Shown in pieces: positions 41,536 to 43,830 of a stretch of DNA of 64,000 bases. The stretch comes from Arcticibacter eurypsychrophilus (GTDB lineage: Bacteria > Bacteroidota > Bacteroidia > Sphingobacteriales > Sphingobacteriaceae), in assembly GCF_001730525.1 (NCBI RefSeq), contig NZ_MDFN01000009.1, forward strand, positions 1 to 64,000, given 5' to 3'. The first letter of the stretch is position 1. Each line of letters opens with the position of its first letter. The position numbers and the translations under genes were made by a program. The notes beneath the pieces are model-generated. The model was not told the DNA's origin. It did no database searches and saw only the letters and a list, made by a program, of their open reading frames with translations.

Positions 41536-41901
41536 GGGGCCGACCGGAATTGACAGGATGGTAGCAGGTATGTAAGCATGCAGCGCGTTGTGAGACTAGC
41601 GCTTAAATCTGAACTCTCAAAACCACAATTGGCGAAAATAACTACGCCTTAGCTGCCTAATTTAGAATTAGCTTAGCTTTTGTCCCGCTGGTATTCTGTT
41701 CTGTTTAATCAGTATATGGGGCATCGTTCAACAGAACTGGTCTGATAAAAGGTGTGATTACCGGACAAGATAAAGCACCTAAGGAAGACGGTACAGGCAC
41801 TCGGTCAGCCTTCCCCTTCTCTACAATTAAATGACAGATACGCATGTAGAAAGCATAATTTGTTCCATGTTTGGACGAGGGTTCGAATCCCTCCGGCTCC
41901 A
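41536..41901 (+). ncRNA. ssrA: Transfer-messenger RNA (tmRNA)
   Basis: The 5' end GGGGCCGACCGG and 3' end GGTTCGAATCCCTCCGGCTCC-A form the alanine-tRNA-like half: GGGGCCG pairs with CGGCTCC and a T arm with TTCGAAT is present. The tag ORF at 41631-41660 reads GENNYALAA and then TAA, the type of tag known from Porphyromonas. CCA is not encoded. It rescues stalled ribosomes together with SmpB. The 3' end is the usual target of integrating elements, and a recombinase remnant begins 80 bases downstream. Confidence 0.97.
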
Positions 41902-41918
41902 CATCTTAAAGAGCTTTT

Positions 41919-41947
41919 AGTCAGCCGGTTACAGAAACTGGCTGACT
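41919..41947 (+). other. Inverted repeat behind tmRNA
   Basis: AGTCAGCCGGTT (41919-41930) pairs with AACTGGCTGACT around a short ACAGA loop, with one G-T pair. It lies 18 bases past the tmRNA end. No T run follows, so it may be a weak terminator or an integrase arm site. Confidence 0.45.
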
Positions 41948-41981
41948 ATCCAGCTGACCAAAAACTAAAGAATTACTCCGA

Positions 41982-42817
41982 GTGAATGCTAAATGGGAAG
42001 GACCTTTCATATTTGAACCTCCAAAAGGAGATCTTTCGAAAGATCGGTTTGTCTGGATCAAATATCAAAACCCTTTAACCGGTAAGCTGGAAAGATTTCG
42101 TTACAATATAGGATTAAATAAATTTACGACCAAAGAGGACCGCCGGCAACATGGTAAGTCTTTAAGGGTTGTAAGTGATAACCTACTCAAAGAAGACTGG
42201 TCTCCATTTGAAAAGCATGATGCCTTTGCAAGGCACAAAGATAAATCTGTTGTATCTCTTATAGATCAGTACCTGGATGAGATAAAAAGTAATCTGAGGC
42301 CTAACACCTACAAGAAATATTATATTGAAGTCCAGTTCTTCAAAAAGTATTTGATATCAAATTACCTGGTCAACCTTTTATTGAATGATGTCACAAAGAC
42401 AGTCGTCGTCAATTTTCTTAATTGGGGAAAACAAAAACGAGCATGGAAGGCCAAAACCTATAATCACTATTTGAATGACATCACGACGATGTTCAATTAT
42501 TATCACCAGAATTACGATAACTACATTGGAAAGGTTCCGGCTCTGAGTCTTAAGCGTGCACCCAGTGAGAGGCCTGGCAATTCTGCATTTAGTGATTGGC
42601 AGTTTAAGAAGCTAAGGGAATCGATGTTTAGGAATGGTGACACGATGCTTTATACCTTCTGCAGCTTTATATATTATGGAGCTTTGAGAAATGAAGCTGA
42701 GGGAAACTATTTGAAGCCGGTGACTTTAATTTCAGCATAAAGAAATTGAAGGTTGATTCCGGAACACCAAAGAACAGAAAGACGGAAGAAGGAGAATCAA
42801 GATTTAATGAGCTATAG
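41982..42817 (+). pseudogene. Tyrosine recombinase (phage integrase) remnant
   Basis: The readable frame (252 codons to 42740) has an N-terminal arm-binding region and a SAM-like core-binding domain (SVVSLIDQYLDEIKSNLRPNTYKKYYIEVQFFKKYL ... KAKTYNHYLNDITTMFNYY), then begins the catalytic domain with FIYYGALRNEAE, where the Arg of ALRNEA would be catalytic Arg I. It stops at 42740. Reading continues in another frame from about 42700, with FNFSIKKLKVDSGTPKNRKTE, which suits the next integrase segment, and stops at 42817. The H-x-x-R and Tyr boxes are missing. So the gene has a frameshift and a 3' deletion and cannot be active. Confidence 0.8.
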
Positions 42818-42831
42818 GCTAGTTTTGTCAA

Positions 42832-42889
42832 TAATATTACCAAATTCTAATTATACCGAATTCGGTATAATTAGAATTTGGTAATATTA
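42832..42889. repeat. Perfect 58-bp palindrome upstream of the KilA-N gene
   Basis: Two 29-base arms without a spacer are exact reverse complements, centred on GAATTC (42858-42863). It ends 32 bases before the KilA-N start codon. The central 26 bp (42848-42873) recur with one change inside the KilA-N coding sequence at 43104-43129. In RNA it would form a near-perfect 29-pair hairpin with no tetraloop, and in DNA it could be an operator or a cruciform. A small hairpin, GCCTT-CAA-AAGGC, follows at 42896-42908. Confidence 0.97.
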
Positions 42890-42921
42890 GCAATCGCCTT
42901 CAAAAGGCTAGAAATAACATT

Positions 42922-43830
42922 ATGAGTAAAATAATTATAGAAGGAATTGAGATTAATGTTGAATCAAAGGAGAACATTGATTACATCTCATTGACAGACA
43001 TGGCAAAAAGCCAGCATGAAAACATCATAATAACTAAATGGTTAAGCTTAAAAAACACAATTGAATACCTTGGTGAATGGGAGGCCATGTATAATCCTGA
43101 TTTTAATTATACCGAATTCGGTACAATTAAAAATACATCAGGAAGTAACAACTTTGTACTTTCAGTAAAGGAGTGGATTGAAAGAACAGGTGCCATCGGG
43201 ATAACAGCAAAAGCTGGAAGATATGGTGGAACCTATGCTCATAAAGACATCGCATTTCAATTTGGAATGTGGATCAGCCCAAAATTCCAATTATTGTTAG
43301 TCAAGGAATTTCAGAGACTAAAAGAAGAAGAAAATAAAAGATTAGGGTCTGAATGGGATTATCGTCGCTTTCTTTCAAAAACAAATTACAAGATACATAC
43401 CGACGCTATTAAGGATTTTGTTCTTCCTGCTTTAAACGTTTCTAAAGAAAATGAGTGGCTTGTATATGCTGACGAGGCTGATATCTTGAATGTTGCCATG
43501 TTTGGAATGACTTCAAAGACGTGGAAAGAGACAAACCCTGAAGCAGCACTAAAAAACCTAAACTTACGGGATTTAGCAGATGCTCATCAGTTGATAGTAC
43601 TAAGCAACCTTGAAAGTCTTAATGCTGGGATGATTCAGGCTGGAGCAGATAAATCCTCACGCTTGTTTACCCTGAGAAAGAATGCCGAATTTCAACTCAA
43701 CTCTTTAAGAAAATCTACCTATACTTTAGAAAAAATTCAAAGTCCTTTTTCAGATGTTAAAAATAAGACAATTGATACACCTATTACAGTTACTCCGTCA
43801 ACTAAAGTGAAAAAAATAATTAAGCCATAA
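42922..43830 (+). CDS. KilA-N domain protein
   Basis: A 302-residue protein with an N-terminal KilA-N DNA-binding domain over about residues 5-115: IDYISLTDMAK, IIITKWLSLKNTIEYLGEWEAMYNPDFNYTEFG, and SVKEWIERTGAIGITAKAGRYGGTYAHKDIAFQFGMWISPKFQLLLVKEFQRLKEEE. The C-terminal half is helical (LSKTNYKIHTDAIKDFVLPAL ... NLRDLADAHQLIVLSNLESLNAGMIQAGADKSSRLFTLRKNAEFQLNSL) and typical of Bacteroidota members. KilA-N proteins are phage- and mobile-element-associated; their function in bacteria is largely unknown. It is intact in a decayed element, preceded by a perfect palindrome. Confidence 0.9.
   Translation: MSKIIIEGIEINVESKENIDYISLTDMAKSQHENIIITKWLSLKNTIEYLGEWEAMYNPDFNYTEFGTIKNTSGSNNFVLSVKEWIERTGAIGITAKAGRYGGTYAHKDIAFQFGMWISPKFQLLLVKEFQRLKEEENKRLGSEWDYRRFLSKTNYKIHTDAIKDFVLPALNVSKENEWLVYADEADILNVAMFGMTSKTWKETNPEAALKNLNLRDLADAHQLIVLSNLESLNAGMIQAGADKSSRLFTLRKNAEFQLNSLRKSTYTLEKIQSPFSDVKNKTIDTPITVTPSTKVKKIIKP
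43104..43129. repeat. Palindrome-core copy inside the KilA-N coding sequence
   Basis: These 26 bases match 25 of 26 positions of the palindrome core at 42848-42873; the single change is T to C near the right end. The copy is itself an inverted repeat with one mismatch and encodes NYTEFGT(I), centred on the Glu-Phe codons GAATTC. The two copies are 256 bp apart. Confidence 0.95.

What the first reader, a model, noticed from the sequence alone, without database searches (positions are those of the whole stretch)
42832..43129. Perfect 58-bp palindrome upstream of a KilA-N gene, with a near-identical core inside the gene
The palindrome at 42832-42889 has two exact 29-base arms with no spacer. Its central 26 bp recur with one change at 43104-43129, inside the KilA-N coding sequence, where they encode NYTEFGT and sit on the Glu-Phe codons that appear conserved in KilA-N proteins. 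Long perfect palindromes are normally lost, so this one is probably kept. Chance identity of 25 of 26 bases so close together is very unlikely. The copy could be an operator pair 256 bp apart for autoregulation by looping, an RNA hairpin with a matching target in the mRNA, or a recognition site that the protein shares with its own gene. I know of no description of such a self-matching arrangement, but I could not search.
Basis: partly seen in the sequence, partly recalled or inferred. Interest (0 to 1): 0.9.

Follow-up and report, generated by a model that had tools for sequence, protein, structure and literature searches.

The report
DNA password inside KilA-N defence genes
A widespread bacterial gene thought to fight viruses carries inside its own protein-coding sequence a short mirror-image DNA word that changes from version to version of the gene, and some viruses carry the same words as tiny 24-letter insertions, which suggests that the word is a password that tells the defence protein not to attack.

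Summary
The pair is local; the inner copy is not. Of 124 non-redundant homologous sites chosen by protein only, 116 carry a palindrome (at least 12 of 16 pairs) at the same codons, TTTTAA-N6-CGAATTCG-N6-TTAAAA. Arms differ between alleles but stay complementary. In the window's class the palindrome codons show no synonymous variation (9 of 9; elsewhere 0 of 122). Arms follow the N-terminal DNA-binding domain when it is exchanged. The same architecture stands alone at 62 non-redundant viral sites outside KilA-N genes; the reversed control pattern gives 0. Of 124 stand-alone half-sites, 72 equal a KilA-N half-site (null mean 4). One phage family shows 24-bp insertions. The protein matches PADLOC's defence candidate PDC-S22. 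Best reading: an allele-specific, DNA-based self-immunity tag like the aba element of BstA (PMC8585504), captured by phages as counter-defence. Anatomy is firm; function is inferred. PDC-S22 does not match the BstA model, so I call it a new variant of a known kind.

The parts
43101..43132 (.). Inner palindrome TTTTAATTATACCGAATTCGGTACAATTAAAA, in frame, encoding F-N-Y-T-E-F-G-T-I-K; proposed allele-specific DNA self-immunity tag
   Evidence: palindrome at this place in 116 of 124 homologous sites; no synonymous variation in its class
42832..42889 (.). Perfect 58-bp palindrome (2 x 29, no spacer); its central 24 bp are a perfectly symmetric version of the inner tag; lies across the stop codon (42848-42850) of a decayed upstream gene; local second copy
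   Evidence: no same-core upstream copy found beside other homologues
42922..43830 (+). KilA-N gene, 302 aa, matches PADLOC PDC-S22 (candidate single-gene phage defence)
   Evidence: Pfam KilA-N E 2.8e-21; PDC-S22 E 4.3e-115
42946..43326 (+). KilA-N domain (proposed DNA-reading module; exchanged together with the palindrome in relatives)
   Evidence: Mbp1-like fold Z 7.2, rmsd 2.4 over 80 residues
42795..42850 (+). Relic of the 3' end of a small gene (SRFNEL*ASFVNNITKF*), resembling the gene just upstream of KilA-N in L002/L071 (SRFNEMWAAYVNAVAKK*); the upstream palindrome lies on its stop codon
   Evidence: translations, compared by eye; start of the relic approximate
41982..42740 (+). Degraded phage-type integrase (SAM-like domain, then interrupted)
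   Evidence: PF13102 E 1.1e-5; translation
41536..41902 (+). tmRNA gene (ssrA); probable integration site; 27 bp of its end (41877-41903) recur in L002 downstream of the related KilA-N gene

Best explanation
The KilA-N protein (family PDC-S22) is probably an intracellular anti-phage protein encoded by prophages, satellites, plasmids and islands. It must spare the element that encodes it. The palindrome inside its gene is the password: a dimer reads the N6 half-sites through its N-terminal KilA-N domain on replicating DNA, and DNA that carries the cognate palindrome is spared, as aba DNA suppresses BstA. Because reader and word lie in one stretch of a few hundred bases, recombination exchanges them together and new alleles arise as pairs. 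Competing phages gain immunity by acquiring a 24-bp copy of a word at a TTAA-like site, often at a stop codon; tandem words of different kinds would give immunity to several alleles. In the window, the upstream 58-bp palindrome is a second copy of the element's own word, its symmetry extended into the flank, probably by fold-back copying. Shown here: the conserved in-gene palindrome, its co-variation, its exchange with the N-terminal domain, the shared vocabulary and the 24-bp insertions. Inferred: defence activity, binding, the sparing effect, and the route of capture.
For: (1) 116 of 124 protein-selected non-redundant sites have at least 12 of 16 pairs; n6 complementarity is 4.76 of 6 over 41 distinct left arms (sites lacking the palindrome included), against 2.11 (sd 0.20, max 3.00 of 5000) with arms re-dealt; other axes in the same genes average 4.3 of 16, max 12, n = 5208. 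(2) 25 genes of the window's class, chosen by peptide, mean protein identity 0.70: 9 of 9 palindrome codons with a conserved residue use one codon; 0 of 122 other such codons do. In eight further classes of 5-13 genes it is 59 of 65 against 214 of 1007, 143 of these 214 in one class of close relatives. (3) Three or four standard pair types occur at each of pairs 6-9, and mismatches are 16 G.T versus 16 A.C, so the constraint looks DNA-level. (4) 67 of 73 pairs with N-terminal identity >=0.85 share the palindrome, 44 of 65 with C-terminal identity >=0.85; L059/L064 are 0.99 C, 0.57 N, with different palindromes and a shared upstream flank. By segment, residues 33-43 carry the most information on palindrome class (relatedness not controlled except by the C-terminal half). 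(5) 118 viral stretches with the exact pattern, 48 at KilA-N codons and 70 not (62 non-redundant), control 0; 72 of 124 stand-alone half-sites equal one of 56 KilA-N half-sites, null mean 4.1, max 12 of 2000. (6) 24-bp insertions of two kinds at one stop codon of one phage family; tandem words 24 bp apart. (7) Of four KilA-N genes lacking the inner palindrome, three have a GAA-axis palindrome nearby (L108 -253; L326 -267, only 12 of 16; L331 -831 and +1206), among nine other palindromes of that strength in those loci. (8) Precedent: BstA/aba, DNA-based, in the gene's own locus, allele-cognate, transferable to P22 (PMC8585504). As bstA lies next to c1, this gene lies next to an annotated repressor or regulator in three of four streptococcal satellites opened (not labelled nor in phage EW).
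Against: No functional data; PDC-S22 is only a predicted defence family. No match to the BstA model and no detectable similarity to BstA in a comparison with a single BstA sequence; aba is a 63-bp element with direct repeats, not described as a palindrome. Many stand-alone copies are imperfect or mix two half-site kinds. No tag-bearing viral locus holds a KilA-N gene in the part of the contig held, so pairing of word and host allele is untested. Upstream palindromes near KilA-N genes mostly carry arms different from the gene's own, which the reading accommodates but did not predict. The viral collection's size in bases was not available, so enrichment in viruses over chromosomes is not shown. 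The second insertion is clean on its left side but only for about 15 bp on its right.
Confidence: 0.55

Rival explanations
1. Autoregulatory operator: a KilA-N repressor dimer binds the palindrome in its own coding sequence and blocks transcription; stand-alone copies are other operators of such regulators.
For: KilA-N/Mbp1-like DNA-binding fold; PHROGs calls the family a transcriptional regulator; a palindrome suits a dimer; residues 33-43 co-vary with it; several decayed palindromes lie 5' of KilA-N genes.
Against: Stand-alone copies lie in unrelated phages, in coding frames (21 of 62) and on stop codons rather than in promoters; of the 10 other upstream palindromes near KilA-N genes, 9 can be compared with an inner palindrome and differ from it in arms; regulation alone does not explain 24-bp insertions in phages with no KilA-N gene in view.
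Confidence: 0.2
2. Mobile mini-palindrome: a 24-bp unit inserting at TTAA-like sites, with KilA-N genes as an ancient host or its mover.
For: 24-bp insertions between TTAA-like ends, tandem units 24 bp apart, reading frames kept open.
Against: No locus of 118 has a second strict copy in the DNA held; arms differ between the tandem neighbours read; the own genome has just two copies of the core; it does not explain why the KilA-N copy does not vary synonymously.
Confidence: 0.12
3. RNA hairpin in the KilA-N mRNA controlling translation, decay or binding of its own protein.
For: A stem of up to 16 pairs with compensatory changes in the coding RNA.
Against: 16 G.T versus 16 A.C mismatches; 41 of 62 stand-alone copies lie between reading frames, on a simple gene call.
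Confidence: 0.05
4. The palindrome is the trigger, not the password: the protein attacks DNA that carries it.
For: The protein family probably reads this sequence (inference).
Against: Nearly every gene that encodes the protein carries the word; one phage family gained it at least twice at a harmless place, which selection would oppose if it were a target.
Confidence: 0.05

Closest known systems
BstA abortive-infection protein with its aba self-immunity element (Salmonella phage BTP1)
   Same: [quoted passage not shown] a short DNA element at its own gene; element differs between alleles; gene beside the repressor (PMC8585504: abstract, passages, Discussion).
   Different: PDC-S22 proteins do not match the BstA model, nor BstA the PDC-S22 model; no similarity found by hhalign with one BstA sequence. 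aba spans the start codon, 63 bp with terminal direct repeats; here a 30-32-bp palindrome lies at about codons 61-70 and has stand-alone copies in phages.
PADLOC PDC-S22 (phage defence candidate, single gene)
   Same: The window protein and all five relatives tested match it.
   Different: The model names a candidate only; the one paper found by that name gives co-occurrence statistics in the passage seen.
KilA-N / APSES DNA-binding domains (Mbp1) and DdrC
   Same: Fold: Mbp1 Z 7.2, rmsd 2.4, 80 residues; DdrC Z 10.2, rmsd 7.2, 183 residues.
   Different: No sequence match of note in the PDB; DdrC covers the length only at a high rmsd, and the tool warns that such Z values can mean a common helical arrangement.
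PARCEL palindromic coding repeats and Rickettsia palindromic elements (the latter recalled)
   Same: Palindromic DNA inside reading frames, spread horizontally (PMC2996958: abstract and outline).
   Different: PARCELs are tandem 25-residue repeats; here one fixed codon site in one family, with allele-specific arms and a shared vocabulary outside.

Membership tests
PDC-S22 (PADLOC) | Match to the family model over the whole protein | tested here: met
   E 4.3e-115, residues 3-273, profile 6-274 of 281
PDC-S22 (PADLOC) | Anti-phage activity | not testable with these tools
   candidate status only; no assay seen in the one paper found
KilA-N domain proteins | Pfam KilA-N above cut-off | tested here: met
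   75.8 bits, cut-off 23.8
BstA | Match to the BstA family model | tested here: not met
   six PDC-S22 proteins do not list the BstA model; BstA of BTP1 matches it at 1.9e-124 and does not list PDC-S22
BstA | Remote homology to BstA | tested here: inconclusive
   hhalign of one BstA sequence against A2: probability 0.1, E 0.63; Pfam finds no KilA-N in BstA, while the paper reports a KilA-N-like domain by remote methods
BstA/aba | Allele-specific DNA element within the gene's own locus | tested here: inconclusive
   anatomy met (in-gene, allele-specific, DNA-level); immunity function not tested
BstA/aba | Gene lies beside the prophage repressor | tested here: inconclusive
   annotated repressor or regulator next to the gene in three of four satellites opened (not in 24), unlabelled in phage EW; an S24-repressor-like frame upstream in L071 (by eye, motif recalled); not surveyed family-wide
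BstA/aba | Element suppresses the protein's inhibition of DNA replication | not testable with these tools
   needs experiment
Transposable mini-element | Repeated copies of one unit in a genome with target duplication | tested here: inconclusive
   no second strict copy in the held DNA of any of 118 loci, but only parts of contigs are held; TTAA-like ends present

The most novel reading that the evidence does not exclude
A general password system: a defence protein family found in Bacteroidota, Bacillota and Pseudomonadota (and in draft genomes labelled Neomarinimicrobiota and Ignavibacteria) carries, in the coding sequence of its own DNA-reading domain, the 24-32-bp palindrome that the same domain recognises, so reader and word evolve and recombine as one. 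Phages collect stand-alone words, singly or in 24-bp tandem arrays, as immunity to particular alleles: a DNA-level counter-defence that needs no protein.
Probability: 0.48. Interest if true: 0.95.

Novelty: new variant of a known kind. Interest (0 to 1): 0.88.

Why it matters
BstA/aba left open how DNA silences its protein and whether such self-immunity is widespread (PMC8585504 Discussion). This family offers dozens of natural arm classes (38) with a defined, short, symmetric element, natural domain swaps, and stand-alone copies in phages, so the recognition code and a protein-free counter-defence can be tested directly. It is also a clear case of one stretch of DNA conserved at once as code and, it seems, as a recognition site. 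No description was found in the papers searched, an open-access library without preprints.

Tried and rejected
Chance: rejected by re-dealt arms, other axes and codon use. A conserved peptide as the sole cause: rejected, since synonymous sites are frozen at the palindrome and not elsewhere. An operator pair 256 bp apart: rejected as a family feature. Genome-wide spread of the core: not seen in the own genome; of 151 genomes of the family, 7 hold the core pattern: own, 3 at KilA-N codons, 3 at sites that are only partly symmetric.

Led nowhere: NCBIfam, no match; PDB by sequence, none, or one weak hit to mitrocomin; one 32-nt palindrome in E. coli genomes, no match; phage searches with L148 and L182, no match; L151 helicase hits, which do not reach the palindrome; L250 portal family, linker too variable to define an empty site; L148 family, no clean empty site. 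Papers on DdrC with KilA-N: none.

Rows dropped before counts: own-genome duplicates and chance loci (L001, L026-L041); loci chosen by the palindrome pattern (L072-L097, L139-L256) in the counts, though included; identical 186-nt sites; alignments not spanning the codons, among them L024, whose palindrome lacks 2 bp at the centre. The viral protein scan kept the best 80 of 113. One search scanned 187 loci, not all non-redundant, and lists low-symmetry half-site hits at about the chance number; only those with at least 9 of 16 pairs were counted. In one search the set of KilA-N half-sites includes pattern-chosen loci. Of 26 plasmid and 17 phage records matched, 6 plasmid and 5 phage regions were opened; of those 11, 10 carry the palindrome and 1 (L108) does not. 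A first version of the codon test chose genes partly by the palindrome's own DNA; it was repeated with genes chosen by peptide, with the same result.

Full report
What is in the window. The palindrome at 42832-42889 is perfect (two 29-nt arms, no spacer) and its centre recurs at 43101-43132 inside a 302-aa KilA-N gene (42922-43830). The inner copy is also a palindrome, in register with the codons: F-N-Y-T-E | F-G-T-I-K, axis between GAA and TTC. In the whole genome the core occurs at these two places only, and there is one KilA-N match. The gene follows a degraded integrase beside the tmRNA gene, so it is probably cargo of a decayed integrated element. A close relative (89% identity) lies at the end of a 38.6-kb viral contig (L071); in the matching bacterial contig L002, 27 bp of the tmRNA end recur about 85 bp beyond the point where that viral contig ends.

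The inner palindrome is a family feature. Homologues were collected by protein similarity only. Of 124 non-redundant sites, 116 have at least 12 of 16 complementary pairs and 76 of these have 15 or 16; 4 have 11; 4 (2 to 7 pairs) lack it. The shape is TTTTAA-N6-CGAATTCG-N6-TTAAAA. There are 41 distinct left N6 arms (sites lacking the palindrome included), yet arms match their own partners at 4.76 of 6 positions against 2.11 when partners are re-dealt (5000 times, maximum 3.00). Since codon pairs with codon, the peptide co-varies: for example Asn with Ile, Lys with Phe, Pro with Gly, Val with Asp. The palindrome occurs in Bacteroidota and in draft genomes labelled Neomarinimicrobiota and Ignavibacteria (record titles), and in streptococcal satellites, Staphylococcus phage EW, and plasmid records of Streptococcus agalactiae, Bernardetia, Pasteurella, Aeromonas and Xenorhabdus.

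It is constrained as DNA. In 25 genes of the window's class, chosen by peptide and with mean pairwise protein identity 0.70, all 9 palindrome codons whose residue is conserved use a single codon, whereas 0 of 122 other such codons do (mean share of the commonest codon 0.56). Eight further classes of 5-13 genes give 59 of 65 against 214 of 1007, 143 of the 214 in one class of close relatives. Over 38 arm classes, 60 of 608 cells are mismatched; G.T and A.C are equal, 16 and 16, so there is no sign of RNA wobble. In the AlphaFold2 model (mean pLDDT 86) the palindrome encodes most of helix 63-72.

Two genomes of one genus carry KilA-N genes with a shared upstream flank (94%) and 0.99 identical C-terminal halves, but different N-terminal modules (0.57) and different palindromes; identity resumes at GRYGGTYAHKDIAFEF. 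Over 7260 pairs, palindrome similarity tracks the N-terminal part (partial r 0.36) more than the C-terminal part (0.16). Outside the palindrome, residues 33-43, within and just after helix 33-41, carry the most information on palindrome class by segment (mean excess 0.23-0.24, against 0.058 for the C-terminal half; 85 genes, 14 classes; relatedness is controlled only by that comparison). The fold resembles the Mbp1 DNA-binding domain and, more loosely, DdrC over its length.

The word also stands alone. The exact pattern TTTAA-N6-CGAATTCG-N6-TTAAA finds 118 viral stretches, the reversed pattern none. Of the 118, 48 are at KilA-N codons and 70 (62 non-redundant) are not. By a simple gene call these lie between reading frames (41) or inside them (21); several begin exactly on a gene's TAA stop. 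Symmetry falls off outside TTTAA. Their half-sites are those of KilA-N genes: 72 of 124 equal one of 56, against a mean of 4.1 with letters shuffled; 11 of 62 contain a 24-mer found in a KilA-N gene. Neighbouring CGAATTCG centres are spaced 24 bp in 5 of 6 cases within 60 bp, and the six tandem pairs read differ in arms. In 395 genomes of the window's phylum the pattern has 29 places; 28 lie in KilA-N genes or their relics and one (L075, after a gene end resembling dinD) stands alone. So stand-alone words are rare, and I cannot show that they are denser in viruses than in chromosomes.

Empty sites. In one freshwater phage family, 6 of 78 readable relatives carry a word at the stop codon of a small gene: four (L460, L461, L466, L475) one kind, two (L426, L427) another. 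Alignments with relatives lacking it give gaps of exactly 24 bp. The first kind has 95-96% identity on the left and 88-90% on the right; the second 93-98% on the left, but on the right only about 15 bp before further gaps. So this family gained words at least twice at one harmless place.

Near KilA-N genes. In 187 loci, 11 palindromes with an exact half-site and at least 9 of 16 pairs, at 9 loci, lie upstream of the inner axis (-60 to -654), and 2 downstream. Only the window's matches the gene's inner arms; one of the others (L108) belongs to a gene without an inner palindrome. Of four genes without the inner palindrome, three have a GAA-axis palindrome nearby, one of them weak. The window's upstream copy lies across the stop codon of a decayed gene whose relative in L071 has no palindrome there. 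Its left arm reads as that gene's coding sequence, so the right flank is probably an inverted copy of it; this would explain the 58-bp length (inference).

Mechanism. PADLOC files the family as PDC-S22, a predicted single-gene defence. The closest tested system is BstA, a prophage abortive-infection protein with a KilA-N-like domain whose own gene start contains aba, a DNA element that silences it, is specific to the allele, and protects phage P22 when moved there (PMC8585504: abstract, passages and Discussion). The two do not match each other's models and a comparison with one BstA sequence found nothing, so I do not file this as a BstA, but it probably works like one. The weakest link is function: no assay of PDC-S22 was found, and which allele meets which phage is unknown.

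Literature. Searches for KilA-N with palindromes, defence, repressors or self-immunity, for PDC-S22 and for BstA/aba found no description of this element. The library is open-access only and holds no preprints.

Noticed in passing
window 41536-42740: tmRNA gene followed by a degraded phage-type integrase: the KilA-N gene is probably cargo of a decayed element integrated at ssrA.
   Followed up: partly
L083 1203-1641; L076, L096, L097: Short KilA-N gene relics that include the palindrome, two different ones side by side in L083; the palindrome stays recognisable in decayed genes.
   Followed up: partly
L426, L427, L460, L461, L466, L475 (and L250): One freshwater phage family gained palindromes of two kinds at the same stop codon; a similar site lies in the portal-gene linker of L250.
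   Followed up: partly
L075 1501-1530: Stand-alone palindrome just after a gene end resembling dinD (recalled resemblance) in a genome of the window's phylum; dinD is also annotated near KilA-N in satellite Javan97 (L102).
   Followed up: no
L064 1980-3014: The locus that exchanged its KilA-N module also holds about 0.7 kb of extra sequence absent from L059.
   Followed up: no
L024 2501-3086: KilA-N gene whose palindrome lacks two central bases, where the frame breaks; a palindrome of another class lies upstream.
   Followed up: no
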